Virus record (IMG/VR): IMGVR_UViG_3300025141_009520
Location: 1-27,439 of that record
Origin: a virus
Reading direction: 5' to 3' (one strand)
DNA length: 27,439 bases
Under the pieces are notes generated by a model. That model had not been told where the DNA came from, made no database searches, and saw only the letters and a list, made by a program, of their open reading frames with translations. The position numbers and the translations under genes were made by a program. Below, in pieces: positions 1 through 4,089 of the stretch. Each line of letters starts with the position of its first letter. The stretch's first letter is position 1.

Positions 1-292
1 ATCTATCGGAAAACCTATCTATACAGGATTTCCTCATTGGCTCGGAAATCTCAACGCCAACAAAGGTGTTGAATGGAAGGTAATCTATCAGTCTGGAAAT
101 TCCTTCTCCTCTGGAACACCCAAGGTCAACTATATCGGTTTGTGGTACCGCATACTGTTGGGCCAAATCCGTAACTGCTTCCCTCATTACCTCGTATTGA
201 GGAATGGAGCGTTTTAACATGTCGTCGAAAACCTTTGTGACCTCATCATTGAATTCCCATTTTCCATCAGGGATAACCATGTCTTGGTTCAT
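1..292 (-). CDS. CmoA-like SAM-dependent enzyme (carboxy-SAM synthase candidate), 3' part cut by window edge
   Basis: Only the first 97 codons are visible; the frame is open to the window edge. The start overlaps the upstream stop as ATGA, with GGAG in front. The N-terminus reads WEFNDEV..VFDDMLKRSIPQY (residues 12-33), followed by the Rossmann motif I DLGCSRGEG (56-64) and an acidic strand end at VGVEIS. By memory this matches E. coli CmoA almost without gaps (WTFDERV..VFPDMIQRSVPGY, then DLGCS.G). CmoA makes carboxy-S-adenosylmethionine from SAM and prephenate. The Arg that binds the cofactor carboxylate lies in the missing part, so an ordinary class I methyltransferase remains possible; phages carry such relatives. 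As the last visible gene of a coupled operon with chorismate mutase and a variant C5 DNA methyltransferase, CmoA function is the better reading. Confidence 0.72.
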   Translation of the reverse strand, partial: MNQDMVIPDGKWEFNDEVTKVFDDMLKRSIPQYEVMREAVTDLAQQYAVPQTDIVDLGCSRGEGISRLIDYLPFNTFVGVEISEPMRKSCIDRFSDR

Positions 293-1137
293 TGCTCCAC
301 TCCTATCCTGTTGTTTGCCAATGCGTTATAAATTCCAACTGGTGACCTCCACCCTCCAACGTTCCAATTCGTATCTATTAACGAACGGAAATGTTTGGCT
401 ATACCTGAGTCACCAAGCTGAAGGTTTGTATGTGGGAGTAGGTTTACAATTCTTGGGATTTCCTTCTTGAATGCAAGGCGCGCATGTTTTTTCTGTTTTG
501 GGGAATTCAAGTCCTTGAAGTTGAACCCGTTAAATAGGTCCAGAAGGTCCGGAGATCGGTCCCTGTATGGAACGCTTATTTGGCATTCCTTAGATGCGGC
601 AACTTTCCTAACGCATCTTATTTGAGGGGAACCCTTTAGGAATTCTTCTCTCCTGAAAAGATTTATTGGTTCGGGGTCAACTTGGTCCCTGTAGGTTATC
701 TCCCTCTTCCTACCAAGAGCAAAGTATCTCTCCGCATTGTACCCAATGAGTACGGTAAACCCTGGTTCCAATTCTCTAATTGTCCTAACTATGGGCCATG
801 AGCATTCAATGTCGGATTTTTTCCTAAGACCAAACACCTTTACTAATTCCGAAACGTCCTCTTGTAAAATATCTATGGATCGAGGAAGGATGGTAACCCG
901 GCACTCCAGACCACAGGCCTTTGCGGTCCTCCTTGCCTCCCTTTGGTCCATTGAGTTGACACCCTCTAAGGCAAATGTAAGGCAAAGAGGATTTTTTTTT
1001 GCTGCTATTGCTGCACCAAGCAGTGTATGGGAATCAACTCCACCAGATAGAAGAACGGCAATCCTTCCATCTATCTTCTCCACTTCCTCGATAAGGACTC
1101 TCCTTATTCCTTCCGTTAGATGGTCATCGCTTGGCAT
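289..1137 (-). CDS. Asparagine-synthetase-type PP-loop amide ligase, no glutaminase domain
   Basis: 282 residues. The PP-loop SGGVDS lies at 31-36, followed by LCLTFAL (51-57) and an alpha-hairpin typical of the AsnB synthetase domain. GYNAERYF (132-139) sits where AsnB has its GADELFGGY loop. VPYRD (189-193) and a KK..R.AF stretch (216-223) match the AsnB C-terminal signature. The N-terminal Ntn glutaminase domain with catalytic Cys is absent, so ammonia must come free or from another protein. The family activates a carboxylate as an acyl-AMP and replaces AMP with an amine. The start ATG lies 14 nt inside the upstream methyltransferase gene, with GCGGAGA ahead of it. Context suggests amidation of a carboxymethyl group on DNA (inference). 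QueC or thiolation-type PP-loop enzymes are less likely because the C-terminal AsnB pattern is present. Confidence 0.75.
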   Translation of the reverse strand: MPSDDHLTEGIRRVLIEEVEKIDGRIAVLLSGGVDSHTLLGAAIAAKKNPLCLTFALEGVNSMDQREARRTAKACGLECRVTILPRSIDILQEDVSELVKVFGLRKKSDIECSWPIVRTIRELEPGFTVLIGYNAERYFALGRKREITYRDQVDPEPINLFRREEFLKGSPQIRCVRKVAASKECQISVPYRDRSPDLLDLFNGFNFKDLNSPKQKKHARLAFKKEIPRIVNLLPHTNLQLGDSGIAKHFRSLIDTNWNVGGWRSPVGIYNALANNRIGVEQ

Positions 1138-2155
1138 TTAATTTCTCCGCAATGGTTGAGGCTATCCGACTCATCATCATTGGAGGTACGGCGCGCCCAA
1201 GCCTTTCCCATCTCTGCTCATATGAACCGGAAAGCTCAAAATCATCTGGAAAGGAACAGAGCCTTTTTAATTCATGTATGGTTAGCCTATCGGAGTTTTT
1301 CTGATTTTCCGAAAAGCAGTTAATGGAACTTGGACGATCCACTTTGTAAACATCGCTAAAAAATCCCATAGTGGTAACGGTTGGTGACTGGAAACTTGGC
1401 GTATAAATAGGAGCGCCGACTCCCCATCCTCTTCCGGTAAACCGAATGCACTGGACAGAGGTATCAAGGCCCTTCAAGGATTCTCCTATCGTATAACCCC
1501 AGCTATCGGGACGTGGAAAAACTGGGCTCAACCCCAAATCATTCCTAAACCCTACAAAAATCAATCTTTGGCGAGCCTGTGGAACTCCTAGTCTTCCAGC
1601 ATTTATAATCGCTGCGGAAACCTTGTAACCGCAATCTTTCAACTCTCCAATTATCTGCTTAAAATATCCTTTGGCTTTTCCTCTTATAAGGGCAGGAACG
1701 TTTTCGGCTACGAAGGCACGGGGTTGCAACCCGTCAAGGATTCGGGTGTACTCGAAAAAAAGGTCATCCGTCCTCTGTTTGGTGTCGCTATACTTTTTTA
1801 CTTTTCCCCAATCCTTTGTTCTCTTTCCTGCGGAAGCCAAGCTAAAGGAAGAGCACGGAGGACTTCCGTCTAAAATATCCACAGAACCTTTTGGGATACC
1901 TGCATCCCGTAAAATATCGGAAGCCTCTACTTCCCTAATGTCCCTAGTGTCCAAATGGGAATTTGGGTGATTCAATTTATAAACCTCTGCCGCGGCTGGA
2001 ACAAATTCAGAGGCCCATACAACCTTGCATCCCGCAATCCTGTATCCCAAGCACGATCCACCGCATCCCGAAAACGTGGAAACCACGTTTATCCCATTCC
2101 ATGGGATCGCCGCTATTTCCTTCATGTCTGGAATTCTATATGGAGGTTTCTCCAT
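1124..2155 (-). CDS. Cytosine-C5 DNA methyltransferase family, motif X Asn replaced by Arg
   Basis: 343 residues. The C5 motifs are in order: I, FSGCGGSCLG (28-37); II around WASEF (47-51); IV, GSPPCSSFS with nucleophile Cys101; VI, ENV (151-153); VIII, QARQR (193-197); a variable target-recognition region about 210-290; and motif X, RWERLGRAVPP (315-325). The usual motif X is QxGNxVPP, in which the Asn lies by the SAM methionine end; here it is Arg321 (codon at 1195-1193). The family transfers the methyl of SAM to C5 of cytosine in a short DNA target. The Arg could instead receive the negative charge of carboxy-SAM, making this a carboxymethyltransferase (inference). The start overlaps the chorismate mutase stop as TAATG, with AGAGGG upstream. 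No restriction endonuclease is next to it. Confidence 0.93.
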   Translation of the reverse strand: MEKPPYRIPDMKEIAAIPWNGINVVSTFSGCGGSCLGYRIAGCKVVWASEFVPAAAEVYKLNHPNSHLDTRDIREVEASDILRDAGIPKGSVDILDGSPPCSSFSLASAGKRTKDWGKVKKYSDTKQRTDDLFFEYTRILDGLQPRAFVAENVPALIRGKAKGYFKQIIGELKDCGYKVSAAIINAGRLGVPQARQRLIFVGFRNDLGLSPVFPRPDSWGYTIGESLKGLDTSVQCIRFTGRGWGVGAPIYTPSFQSPTVTTMGFFSDVYKVDRPSSINCFSENQKNSDRLTIHELKRLCSFPDDFELSGSYEQRWERLGRAVPPMMMSRIASTIAEKLNAKR

Positions 2156-2457
2156 TATCCCTCTGGTTCATCAAACCTAGAATGCTCGAAAAGAACTGTC
2201 CAAATCTTACGGGCTACCTCTTCGCCGTATAATCCAGCATCCACCCTTTTTAAGACCTCTTCCTCTCTGGATGGGTCCCGCATGTCCACTTGGAAATCCT
2301 GTTTCAGTTTCTGCATTTTATGAACAAGCTTGGATCTCCGAAGAAGGGCCATGGATATTTCGTCATCCTGCCTGCTTATCATCTTACGAAGGTCCTCGAC
2401 CTCTTTTCTGAAAAAGTCCTTGGCAATTCTAGGGACTCTTGGGTTGTTGGCAATCAT
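2155..2457 (-). CDS. AroQ-type (class II) chorismate mutase, free-standing
   Basis: 100 residues, the usual size for a single all-helical AroQ domain. From L23 to V72 it aligns without gaps to my recollection of E. coli chorismate mutase. It keeps the residues equivalent to Arg11, Arg28, Lys39, Asp48, Arg51, Glu52 and Ser84: here R24, R41, K52, D61, R64, E65 and S93. The Gln88 position is Glu97, as in the yeast enzyme, which has Glu there. The enzyme rearranges chorismate to prephenate. I chose ATG at 2457 because it overlaps the ParB-like stop as ATGA and has GGAG 8 nt ahead. Phages seldom need aromatic amino acid synthesis; prephenate is also the CmoA substrate, and a CmoA-like gene lies three genes downstream. 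A non-catalytic helical protein is the alternative, but the active-site match argues against it. Confidence 0.82.
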   Translation of the reverse strand: MIANNPRVPRIAKDFFRKEVEDLRKMISRQDDEISMALLRRSKLVHKMQKLKQDFQVDMRDPSREEEVLKRVDAGLYGEEVARKIWTVLFEHSRFDEPEG

Positions 2458-2951
2458 GAGGAGGCTCCAGACCACTCATAGTTACACTTTGGGCATCTAT
2501 GGTCCGTTCCTATGTCCTCATTGAATTCCTCAAATTGGGCTGCCGGTTCATTCTCCACCATGAGCTTTTCCAACTCAACAAGGGACCAACCCAGTCCGTC
2601 CAAGTTCACCTCGTCCTTATCTAATTCCGATAGGATTTTGGATAGATCCTGTGACCAGTTGGCAAGTTCACCCAATCGATTATCCGCTAAAGCCAATGCC
2701 CTCGATTCATGTTCCGTGATGTCCACAAACCTAACAGGAACCTTCTCATGCCCAAGTTTGATTGCTGCCTTAAGCCTTGTATGCCCAGCAATAACCCTCC
2801 CATTCTCACGGCGAGCGATGATAACGGCACCCCAGCCAAATCGTTCAAGGCTCTTGGCAACTTCATCCACTGCGTGGTCATTGTCCCTCGGATTCTCTGT
2901 CCAAGGAACCAGGTCCTCAATATCTACCCATTCCGCTGCATTCGGCTCCAT
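2454..2951 (-). CDS. ParB/Srx-like domain protein with C-terminal CxxC
   Basis: 165 residues. The N-terminal half carries the ParB-like fold signature: DLVPWTENPRDN (13-24), a helix ending SLERFGW (34-40), VIAGHTRLKAA (53-63) and VPVRFVDI. Helices follow, with ALADNRL typical of phage and prophage ParB-like proteins next to DNA methyltransferases. The C-terminus ends with CPKC (153-156), one zinc knuckle half. Some family members bind DNA, cut it, or hydrolyse nucleotides; the exact role here is unknown. I chose ATG 2951 over an upstream GTG because GGAG sits 5 nt ahead of it. It is the first gene of the modification module and overlaps the chorismate mutase start. It may bring the modification enzymes to DNA, which is inference. 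Confidence 0.8.
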   Translation of the reverse strand: MEPNAAEWVDIEDLVPWTENPRDNDHAVDEVAKSLERFGWGAVIIARRENGRVIAGHTRLKAAIKLGHEKVPVRFVDITEHESRALALADNRLGELANWSQDLSKILSELDKDEVNLDGLGWSLVELEKLMVENEPAAQFEEFNEDIGTDHRCPKCNYEWSGASS

Positions 2952-2996: not shown

Positions 2997-3260
2997 TCAG
3001 AAAGTAAATTTCACTCCTGCAAGGAATTCATAAACAAGCCTGGACCTATCAGGTTCGGACTCCATGGCAATGGATGCGCTTAGGAATGCGGCGTCCTTGT
3101 CGGTAAAATGGTGTGAATATTCCGCGAGGGCACCAGTCAGGAATCTCTTCCTGTCTCCTTTTATAAACCCGGTGAGATTTAGGCTACTGGTGTTCTCGGG
3201 GAGATCCGTTGCCGCGACTAAGGAGCCCTCAACCTTATCGCTTATATCGTCAAGGGCTAC
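2997..3260 (-). CDS. Open frame after the holin without a standard start codon (possible -1 frameshift product)
   Basis: 87 sense codons, from GTA at 3260 to TGA at 2999-2997, with no stop; the other minus frames here are closed. The peptide looks like real protein: charged and helical, with FIKGDRKRF and DAAFLSASIAME. Arg codons are mixed AGG/AGA as in neighbours. The frame stays open upstream to a TAA at 3329-3327, inside the holin gene, but has no ATG, GTG or TTG before an internal ATG 25 codons from the end. It is in the -1 frame relative to the holin. Possible routes are slippage at CAAAAAG (3308-3302) or CCCC (3266-3263), a CTG start after AGGAAGAG, or an indel error. No function is recognised. 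Confidence 0.5.
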   Translation of the reverse strand, partial: VALDDISDKVEGSLVAATDLPENTSSLNLTGFIKGDRKRFLTGALAEYSHHFTDKDAAFLSASIAMESEPDRSRLVYEFLAGVKFTF

Positions 3261-3490
3261 TTGGGGTCTTGGGTAGAAATGGCACTTGTTAGTGCCTCTG
3301 CCTTTTTGGTCATGCCTCTGGAAATATTATATCCAAGAGCAGTGAACGCACTGGCAGCAAAGGCCATAACCTTGCCTGCGGTCGATTCGTCTCCAACATA
3401 CCCGCTTGCTATCAATGCGCCTAAAATTAAAGCGCAAAGACTTAACCAAAACTCCGAAGTACGGTACCCAGGTTTCCTTGCTTGTGCCAT
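3257..3490 (-). CDS. Small holin-like membrane protein
   Basis: 77 residues. Start ATG 3490 is chosen because it overlaps the endopeptidase stop as TAATG and has AAAGG ahead; a longer upstream reading would run inside the endopeptidase gene. PGYRTSEFWLSL is followed by a hydrophobic segment ALILGALIASG, then a short loop and a second segment ending in ALGYNISRGMTKK. Two membrane passes with a basic end fit small phage holins that release or activate the endolysin. Its place directly after the M15 endopeptidase supports this. Family assignment is by pattern and context, not a catalytic motif. The last 14 codons overlap the open frame described next to it. Confidence 0.7.
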   Translation of the reverse strand: MAQARKPGYRTSEFWLSLCALILGALIASGYVGDESTAGKVMAFAASAFTALGYNISRGMTKKAEALTSAISTQDPK

Positions 3491-4089
3491 TACTTTACCT
3501 TTCTTAAAGAGAAGTGCATAGGATCGCAAAATGTTTTCCATCTGCCGCCCCATTCAAAACCTACACTTTCAAAAGCCATCACCACGCCAGCGGGTAGGCT
3601 GCTATATTCTTTCCAACCCTTAGTAAAGGGCATCGGTCTATCCTTATACTTCCTTCGGCTCCATGCTCTATTTTCTGATGGGTCAATATCGAACGCTATC
3701 CCATAGGTATGGTCCGAGAACGGAACGCGTGGATCTTTGCTATGCCTCATCCTTCTTGGATTGAAACACCCTATCCTTTTTGGTTTCCAATCGGGGCAGT
3801 TGATATGAGCCCGACGCATTGCTTCCACAAAGTACGGAGCAACCAATCGGTGCATATAAAGGCGACGAAAATAATTAGGAAACCTTTCAGCAGGAACCGT
3901 TCCAAGGTTTTTTCCAAACTTCCTAGAAACCTTGAACCTGTTGTCGGCTCCAACGGAAACAGATGGTTCACCATAAACTTCGTCCCTTTCCTTTAATCCA
4001 ACTGGAATACCAATCAACCCACCATCGAACGGTACTACCTCAATTTCCTTTTTCCGAAGCAGTTGGCAAATTTTATTTAGATTCCACAA
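3490..4089 (-). CDS. Endolysin, M15-family peptidase (VanY / Ala-Glu endopeptidase type)
   Basis: 199 residues. SDHTYGIAFDID gives the M15 zinc pattern HxxGxAxD with H127 and D134. GFEWGG (177-182) supplies the catalytic Glu179, and DPMHF supplies the third ligand H192. M15 phage enzymes cut peptide stems of peptidoglycan at the end of infection. The start is probably TTG at 4089, two nt after the upstream stop, with GGGAA ahead; no in-frame ATG occurs before residue 79, which would lose conserved sequence. The stop overlaps the holin start. No signal peptide is seen, so it needs a holin for export, consistent with the next gene. Confidence 0.88.
   Translation of the reverse strand: MWNLNKICQLLRKKEIEVVPFDGGLIGIPVGLKERDEVYGEPSVSVGADNRFKVSRKFGKNLGTVPAERFPNYFRRLYMHRLVAPYFVEAMRRAHINCPDWKPKRIGCFNPRRMRHSKDPRVPFSDHTYGIAFDIDPSENRAWSRRKYKDRPMPFTKGWKEYSSLPAGVVMAFESVGFEWGGRWKTFCDPMHFSLRKVK

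What the first reader, a model, noticed from the sequence alone, without database searches (positions are those of the whole stretch)
1..2951. Five-gene operon that could build 5-carboxymethyl- and 5-carbamoylmethylcytosine in phage DNA
Seen: five overlapping genes encode a ParB-like protein, AroQ chorismate mutase, a C5 cytosine methyltransferase, an AsnB-like amide ligase and a CmoA-like enzyme. Known: chorismate mutase makes prephenate; CmoA makes carboxy-SAM from prephenate and SAM; AsnB-type enzymes amidate activated carboxylates. Inferred: the C5 enzyme puts a carboxymethyl group on cytosine and the ligase turns it into a carbamoylmethyl group, to hide DNA from host nucleases. Each gene alone is odd in a phage; together they form a complete route.
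Basis: partly seen in the sequence, partly recalled or inferred. Interest (0 to 1): 0.96.

Follow-up and report, generated by a model that had tools for sequence, protein, structure and literature searches.

The report
Phage DNA-carboxymethylation operon with chorismate mutase
A phage carries a compact gene set that very probably decorates its cytosines with a carboxymethyl group and then an amide, a chemistry first reported in another phage in 2025, and here and in some relatives it adds an extra gene that could make the pathway's own starting material.

Summary
The five overlapping genes are real. Three belong to the CmoA-CmoX-CmoY system published in December 2025 for Synechococcus phage S-B43 (PMC12783734), which makes 5-carboxymethylcytosine (5cxmC) and its glycine amide. 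The window's C5 enzyme has the diagnostic Arg (SpCmoX R350). CmoA is cut by the contig end; a 99.86% identical contig holds it whole, with Arg199 kept. Among 192 related virus and phage loci, Arg-type enzymes have a CmoA nearby in 169 of 173, Asn-type in 0 of 17 (2 unread). Carboxymethylation is well supported, but not new. A carbamoylmethyl product is not supported: the ligase lacks the glutaminase and resembles SpCmoY, which adds glycine. The new part is the chorismate mutase (CM), a word absent from that paper's main text. It sits between ParB and CmoX in 9 of 10 CM-bearing virus records, after CmoA in the tenth, and before CmoX in 17 Verrucomicrobiota loci; AroQ catalytic residues are invariant in 9 aligned copies. 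Best reading: CM supplies prephenate to CmoA. Against: most relatives lack CM, and one published in vitro assay found it dispensable. No biochemistry was done here.

The parts
2454..2951 (-). ParB-like N-terminal domain protein with a C-terminal zinc-ribbon-like CPKC motif; first gene of the operon
   Evidence: phrog_620 1.5e-39; PF02195 2e-5, 25.0 bits, just under cut-off 26.3; ATG 2951 has GGAGAT upstream
2155..2457 (-). AroQ-type chorismate mutase, stand-alone, about 100 aa; its ATG overlaps the ParB stop as ATGA
   Evidence: PF01817 1.2e-10; 2d8d 8.8e-6; invariant R, R, K, D, R, E; AF2 model pLDDT 84.7; the 18 best fold hits are chorismate mutases or CM-domain proteins, but no Foldseek E under 0.05
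1124..2155 (-). CmoX: DNA cytosine C5-carboxymethyltransferase homologue, 343 aa; SPPC nucleophile motif (C101) and GRAVPP with R321 at the SpCmoX R350 position
   Evidence: (best solved relative 8yf3 = SpCmoX, 1.4e-62)
289..1137 (-). CmoY-type ATP-dependent amide ligase, AsnB synthetase fold without glutaminase, 282 aa
   Evidence: phrog_26038 5.7e-40; AF2 pLDDT 95.0; beta-lactam synthetase 2.8e-10, AsnB 1.2e-8
1..292 (-). CmoA-like (carboxy-SAM synthase), N-terminal 97 residues; the rest lies beyond the contig end and is seen whole in sister contig L003:9864-10571
   Evidence: (TIGR00740 8.5e-16)

Best explanation
A phage DNA-hypermodification operon. CM turns host chorismate into prephenate. 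CmoA uses prephenate and SAM to make carboxy-SAM. CmoX, with an Arg in place of the Asn of ordinary C5 methyltransferases, uses carboxy-SAM to put a carboxymethyl group on C5 of cytosine in DNA. [quoted passage not shown] The ParB-like zinc-ribbon protein probably helps CmoX on DNA. The modified genome would resist host nucleases. Shown by sequence here: family membership, key residues, operon structure, recurrence. Shown by others in a homologous phage: the CmoA, CmoX and CmoY chemistry and resistance to HhaI. Inferred: all activities in this phage, the role of CM, the amine, the role of ParB, protection in vivo.
For: CmoX: best solved relative is SpCmoX 8yf3 (1.4e-62), R321 aligned to R350. 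Arg/Asn control: of 192 deduplicated virus/phage CmoX loci, R with CmoA 169, R without 4, N with 0, N without 17, unread 2; with at least 1.5 kb on both sides 90, 3, 0, 9, one unread. Leaving out representatives first fetched by the CmoA scan and L001-L003: 137, 4, 0, 17 of 160, two unread, Fisher p 2e-19. In 80 bacterial-genome loci, not deduplicated: 38, 4, 0, 33, five unread. CmoA of the sister keeps E. coli F137, E164, R199 and Y39, D62, G64, S66, D117. CM: PF01817 over cut-off in the window's copy and in 8 further distinct ones; in all 9 the invariant columns are M1 plus R, D, R, K, D, R, E, R, spaced as the AroQ active site (EcCM numbering recalled). CM lies between ParB and CmoX in 9 of 10 CM-bearing virus records and follows CmoA in one, L227; 17 of 80 genome loci carry it before CmoX. 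PF01817 over 168 whole records found 3 CMs, each directly before CmoX and none elsewhere. A CmoX-CmoY fusion in L390 ties those two steps together. Published activity: PMC12783734.
Against: CM is absent from most CmoX/CmoA loci: 15 of 236 representative CmoX rows have it. Close relatives of the CM-bearing L047 (CmoX 77-82% identical), L250 and L251, have ParB directly before CmoX and no CM hit. A CM-first scan found only the five records its query was made from. In an in vitro CmoA cascade from chorismate, omitting CM gave equal or better carboxy-SAM yields, because chorismate rearranges spontaneously (PMC7496830). The Verrucomicrobiota genomes with the cassette also hold strong CM_2 matches inside long open frames, so prephenate is not missing there. 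On the tree the Arg/CmoA link rests on 5 independent pairs, sign test p 0.0625. In this phage CmoA D89, N90 and N132 are E, I and V, and the full CmoA and all CMs scanned score under NCBI's equivalog cut-offs. CmoY is only 29% identical to SpCmoY.
Confidence: 0.75

Rival explanations
1. One reading: CmoY uses ammonia and makes 5-carbamoylmethylcytosine.
For: The fold is that of the AsnB/beta-lactam synthetase family. Relatives in other CmoX operons carry GATase_6/7 domains (all 3 long ligases tested), so carbamoylmethyl is plausible for them. The SpCmoY glycine pocket could not be compared residue by residue, because supplementary files could not be opened.
Against: No glutaminase domain in the window ligase, nor a glutaminase match in the other four genes. 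It is 29-37% identical to SpCmoY, PaBG and several short ligases, against 17-22% to the synthetase domains of five long ones, though some short ligases are as low as 22%. It shares KK[ST]..EC and H.NLQLG with SpCmoY, while the five long ones read SKAQIEI or YKAQVEI and lack NLQLG.
Confidence: 0.12
2. CmoX is an ordinary C5 methyltransferase that makes 5-methylcytosine, and CM, CmoA and ligase are unrelated neighbours.
For: The fold and most motifs are those of C5 methyltransferases. Asn-type relatives exist, L017 and L020 among them with a ParB gene.
Against: Arg at the cofactor-carboxylate position; Arg and CmoA co-occur, and no Asn-type locus seen has CmoA in the fetched stretch. Wild-type SpCmoX accepted only Cx-SAM (PMC12783734). 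A CmoX-CmoY fusion ORF occurs in a SAR116 genome (L390).
Confidence: 0.06
3. CM serves something else: draining host chorismate (folate, siderophores, ubiquinone), a structural part of the CmoX complex, or isochorismate pyruvate lyase activity.
For: CM is optional in the operon and was dispensable in vitro. AroQ folds include isochorismate lyases.
Against: The CMs recovered in virus and Verrucomicrobiota loci sit beside CmoX or CmoA. The AroQ residues are invariant across 9 copies, with 20-38% identity between lineages in the pairs listed. For the window CM a chorismate mutase model (2.8e-7) beats the isochorismate lyase model (0.032), both under cut-off; four more phage CMs have a chorismate mutase model on top. 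CmoA needs the product of CM.
Confidence: 0.17

Closest known systems
CmoA-CmoX-CmoY system of Synechococcus phage S-B43 (PMC12783734, Nat Commun, 7 Dec 2025)
   Same: CmoA, Arg-type CmoX and a glutaminase-free CmoY in adjacent overlapping genes; the paper also reports ParBc neighbours in many contigs
   Different: S-B43 has the order CmoA-CmoY-CmoX and no gene annotated as ParB in the listed neighbourhood; its whole record has no PF01817 match. The window has ParB-CM-CmoX-CmoY-CmoA. CmoX 39% and CmoY 29% identical
Pseudomonas phage PaBG cluster (KF147891)
   Same: ParB, CmoX, CmoA and a short ligase together; top phage hit for the CmoA fragment; CmoY 33-34% and full CmoA 45% identical
   Different: No PF01817 match in the whole 258-kb record; order ParB-CmoX-CmoA-small gene-ligase
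Verrucomicrobiota ParB-CM-CmoX-CmoA cassettes (17 loci: L338, L340-L342, L344-L353, L355, L399, L402) and related virus records (L047, L252, L253, L295, L304)
   Same: CM in the same slot before CmoX
   Different: No CmoY hit in the fetched stretches, so the end product there may be 5cxmC itself; shorter CmoA type in L047
Engineered M.MpeI N374K carboxymethyltransferase (as described in PMC12783734)
   Same: A basic residue in place of the motif Asn lets a C5 enzyme use carboxy-SAM
   Different: Engineered, CG-preferring, no CM or ligase
E. coli CmoA/CmoB tRNA cmo5U pathway
   Same: Carboxy-SAM from prephenate and SAM
   Different: RNA substrate and CmoB; here a DNA C5 enzyme stands in its place in the operon

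Membership tests
CmoX (DNA cytosine C5-carboxymethyltransferase) | C5 methyltransferase fold with SPPC nucleophile motif | tested here: met
   PF00145 2e-53; SPPC with C101 invariant in A1
CmoX (DNA cytosine C5-carboxymethyltransferase) | Arg in place of the motif Asn (SpCmoX R350) | tested here: met
   R321 aligned with R350 of 8yf3; Arg in the sister too
CmoX (DNA cytosine C5-carboxymethyltransferase) | Carboxymethyl transfer from carboxy-SAM to cytosine | not testable with these tools
   needs enzyme assay or LC-MS
CmoA (carboxy-SAM synthase) | CmoA homology with the carboxylate-binding Arg199 (PMC3663124) | tested here: met
   full copy in sister contig L003, R192; the window itself holds only residues 1-97, with Y33, D56, G58, S60 at E. 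coli positions Y39, D62, G64, S66
CmoA (carboxy-SAM synthase) | All cofactor contacts of E. coli CmoA | tested here: inconclusive
   D89, N90, N132 are E, I, V; in the alignment SpCmoA, active per PMC12783734, also differs at the N132 and R199 columns, so these are not strict
CmoA (carboxy-SAM synthase) | Score over NCBI's equivalog cut-off for cellular CmoA (TIGR00740) | tested here: not met
   160.3 bits against 193.3 for the full copy, E 6e-47 and by far the best family; so a phage CmoA homologue, not an NCBI-grade equivalog. SpCmoA was not scored
CmoY (5cxmC amide ligase, SpCmoY class) | AsnB-type synthetase domain with SGG.DS PP-loop and no glutaminase | tested here: met
   of 96 distinct ligase ORFs 47 short, 42 long, 7 cut by contig ends
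CmoY (5cxmC amide ligase, SpCmoY class) | Residues that bind the glycine carboxylate | not tested
   given only in a supplementary figure of PMC12783734, which could not be opened
AroQ chorismate mutase | All-helical AroQ fold | tested here: met
   PF01817 1.2e-10 over cut-off; AF2 model (pLDDT 84.7) whose 18 best fold hits are chorismate mutases or CM-domain proteins, Foldseek E 0.057 or worse for so short a chain
AroQ chorismate mutase | Catalytic R11, R28, K39, D48, R51, E52 (numbering recalled) | tested here: met
   R30, R47, K58, D67, R70, E71 with identical spacing, invariant in 9 copies
Glutaminase-bearing (probably carbamoyl-forming) 5cxmC ligase | N-terminal GATase_6/7 domain | tested here: not met
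   absent in the window ligase; present in L258, L228, L069

The most novel reading that the evidence does not exclude
The phage carries a complete dedicated route from host chorismate to a hypermodified cytosine, with CM and CmoA working as a prephenate channel, and CmoY joins an amine other than glycine, so the virion holds a DNA base not yet described.
Probability: 0.3. Interest if true: 0.78.

Novelty: new variant of a known kind. Interest (0 to 1): 0.6.

Why it matters
The paper that found natural 5cxmC says the availability of prephenate in different hosts needs investigation. A chorismate mutase gene found repeatedly in the slot before CmoX is a direct, testable answer for some phages: they bring their own supply. 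The Arg/Asn split with CmoA presence gives a simple sequence rule for telling carboxymethyl- from methyl-transferring phage C5 enzymes. Two ligase classes in the same kind of operon point to at least two different amide end products.

Tried and rejected
Rejected: an ordinary 5-methylcytosine operon (no Asn-type locus seen has CmoA nearby). Rejected: a CmoA-CM fusion in L227. The stop-to-stop frame that holds CM overlaps CmoA out of frame; CM starts at GTG 3029 beside the CmoA stop at 3032. Led nowhere: tblastn of the window CM (E 0.01) and the L065 CM (E 0.1) in 50,697 phage records gave no match, and the L047 CM gave one record, labelled a Salmonella sequence with an annotated chorismate mutase; tblastn is weak for such short divergent proteins. 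The Asn-type control scan gave only 6 loci, three of them already held Arg-type ones, so it was not used as a background set. The CM-first scan returned only the five records from which its query was made, so it says that no other close copy was found, and nothing about where CMs lie in general. Papers naming chorismate mutase with bacteriophage (95 held, 20 listed; passages read in two) gave a BLAST-hit name for an integrase and a rumen AMG list, not this system. Chorismate mutase with phage and DNA modification gave 5 listings, none on this by title and abstract.

Searches dropped loci without a CmoX hit and loci with an identical core stretch around SPPC (299 loci with CmoX, 192 kept). The genome count is not deduplicated. 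The CmoX tree used 236 of 372 rows after near-duplicates were dropped; 17 of the 236 had no readable residue. Loci L105-L181 were recruited by CmoA and are left out of the second count. CM counts in loci use a profile built here from these CMs; PF01817 itself was run on 168 records (3 with a match), on 8 genomes (7 with a match) and on 8 of the CMs. An earlier count said 18 genome loci with CM; its own list and one search give 17.
Full report
What is there. On the minus strand of window 1-2951 five genes overlap head to tail: ParB-like, chorismate mutase (CM), C5 cytosine methyltransferase homologue, AsnB-like ligase, CmoA-like. The junctions are ATGA (ParB/CM), TAATG (CM/C5 enzyme), a 14-base overlap (C5 enzyme/ligase) and ATGA (ligase/CmoA), as expected for a translationally coupled operon. 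Likely starts are ATG 2951 for ParB and ATG 2457 for CM, rather than the longest-ORF GTGs. The record is the window itself, a virus record without further sequence, so CmoA is cut after 97 residues. Of 9 further window proteins scanned against PHROGs, 4 matched: portal-like, major-head-like, endolysin-like and one of unknown function. The rest of the window was not annotated in full.

The sister contig. IMGVR_UViG_3300025112_000113 (L003) matches the window at 99.86% over 10,155 bases and continues past the break. It has the same five genes, and CmoA is complete at 235 aa. Against E. coli CmoA (4gek; residues named in PMC3663124, passages read) it keeps F137, E164 and R199 (R192 here) and Y39, D62, G64, S66 and D117; D89, N90 and N132 are E, I and V. 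It scores 160.3 bits with NCBI's CmoA equivalog TIGR00740, E 6e-47, under the cut-off of 193.3. SpCmoA, active according to PMC12783734, differs at the N132 and R199 columns in the alignment, so these are not absolute needs.

The C5 enzyme. Its best solved relative is 8yf3, SpCmoX (1.4e-62), ahead of HaeIII methylase at 6.2e-26. The window motif GRAVPP puts R321 on SpCmoX R350, the residue that meets the carboxylate of carboxy-SAM (PMC12783734: outline and abstract; parts 1-3 of 8 of the text; term search). As a control I read this residue in related loci and asked whether a CmoA lies in the fetched stretch. Of 192 deduplicated virus and phage loci: R with CmoA 169, R without 4, N with CmoA 0, N without 17, unread 2; with at least 1.5 kb on both sides 90, 3, 0, 9, one unread. 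Leaving out representatives first fetched by the CmoA scan and L001-L003: 137, 4, 0, 17 of 160, two unread. In 80 loci from bacterial genomes, not deduplicated: 38, 4, 0, 33, five unread. On a tree of 236 representatives (162, 8, 0, 49, 17 unread) the residue changes 5 times, and in the 5 independent pairs CmoA goes the same way 4.9 times on average, which cannot reach significance (p 0.0625).

The ligase. The window ligase is 282 aa without a glutaminase domain. Its AF2 model (pLDDT 95.0, 40-row alignment) is nearest to beta-lactam synthetase (2.8e-10) and AsnB (1.2e-8). Ligases in these loci fall into two lengths: of 96 distinct ORFs, 47 are at most 330 aa, 42 at least 360 aa and 7 are cut by contig ends. 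Three long ones tested all have GATase_6 and GATase_7 domains, while SpCmoY and the PaBG ligase have none. The window ligase shares motifs with SpCmoY rather than with five long ones. SpCmoY ligates glycine, and the paper suggests glutamine-derived ammonia only for the glutaminase-bearing class. The likely product here is therefore an amino-acid amide of 5cxmC, not carbamoylmethylcytosine. The glycine-pocket residues are in a supplementary figure that I could not open, so the amine stays open. A CmoX-CmoY fusion exists in a SAR116 genome locus, L390: CmoY profile at residues 39-274 and CmoX profile at 337-711 of one 713-aa frame.

The chorismate mutase. The word chorismate does not occur in the main text of PMC12783734. 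PF01817 searched in 168 whole records of CmoX or CmoA loci found 3, each directly upstream of CmoX (adjacency). Two further scans with the CmoX of L065 and L047 and a profile built here raised this to 10 virus records: window, L003, L065, L047, L252, L253, L295, L304, L246 and L227. In 9 of the 10 CM lies between ParB and CmoX; in L227 it follows CmoA. In addition 17 of 80 genome loci have CM before CmoX, all from five Verrucomicrobiota assemblies; one copy is broken (L402) and one apparently frameshifted (L348). A CM-first scan of the viral collection with the five closest CMs returned only those five records. Eight further CMs score over the Pfam cut-off; with NCBIfam four of them have a chorismate mutase model on top, all under equivalog cut-offs. 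In the nine-row alignment the invariant columns are M1 plus R, D, R, K, D, R, E, R with the AroQ active-site spacing (the E. coli numbering R11, R28, K39, D48, R51, E52 is recalled). Of 26 distinct CM strings 24 keep the motif, the two without it being pieces of the broken L402 gene, and no other ORF among the 41,926 compared has it. On the CmoX tree CM changes state 8 times; 15 of 170 Arg-type and 0 of 49 Asn-type representatives have it, counts that are not independent of kinship. Gain and loss cannot be told apart: close relatives of L047 such as L250 and L251 have ParB directly before CmoX without CM, so the slot gains or loses CM easily, and the shared slot could mean one old acquisition with losses.

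Why a phage would carry it (inference). CmoA consumes prephenate. In E. coli pheA is a fusion of CM and prephenate dehydratase (PMC6599085, passage read). Of 8 genomes searched with PF01817, 7 have a match; all five with the CM cassette, and one with a CmoX-CmoA locus that lacks CM, hold strong matches in open frames of 312-508 aa, consistent with such fusions but not examined further. A small stand-alone CM would make prephenate without the next step. Against this, in an in vitro cascade CM could be left out without loss (PMC7496830, passage read), and most CmoX loci lack CM.

Novelty. CmoA-CmoX-CmoY and the ParB association are published. CM as an operon member is not mentioned in that paper's main text. 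Searches for CmoX/CmoY/5cxmC (10 papers, only that one on the subject by listing), chorismate mutase with CmoA (3 papers, passages read in two), chorismate mutase with bacteriophage (95 papers, 20 listed, passages read in two), prephenate/phage/carboxymethyl/cytosine (98 papers, 15 listed) and phage DNA hypermodification terms (20 papers, 15 listed) showed no other paper on this link. Preprints and supplements were not searchable. I rate it a new variant of a known kind.

Noticed in passing
L390:4990-7131: One 713-aa frame in a SAR116 genome locus holds a CmoY profile match (39-274) and a CmoX match (337-711): a CmoX-CmoY fusion, with CmoA nearby.
   Followed up: partly
L338, L340-L342, L344-L353, L355, L399, L402 (genome loci): Verrucomicrobiota assemblies carry several ParB-CM-CmoX-CmoA cassettes (six loci each in USDE_maxbin.037 and FR_27), possibly a family of prophages or mobile elements.
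   Followed up: partly
L005, L006, L009, L010, L012, L014, L024: A second, shorter CmoA type (212-225 aa) beside Arg-type CmoX in which the Arg199 column is not Arg.
   Followed up: no
window 2454-2500 (-): The ParB-like protein ends in a zinc-ribbon-like motif (CPKCNYEWSG); similar tails end the ParB proteins of L047 and L065.
   Followed up: no
L047, L065, L227, L246, L252, L253, L295, L304: CM-bearing operons other than the window lineage have no CmoY hit in the fetched stretch, so their product may stop at 5cxmC.
   Followed up: partly
L250, L251: Close relatives of L047 in which ParB directly precedes CmoX and no CM is found: the slot gains or loses CM over short distances.
   Followed up: partly
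L304:5950-7238: CmoX is split over two frames in this virus contig, while L399, with an identical CM, has one CmoX frame.
   Followed up: no
L284, L082, L321, L104: Arg-type CmoX loci with no CmoA in the fetched stretch; they may rely on host CmoA, as recombinant SpCmoX did in E. coli (PMC12783734).
   Followed up: no
window 3490-4089 (-): M15-type peptidase, endolysin-like, just upstream of the operon.
   Followed up: no
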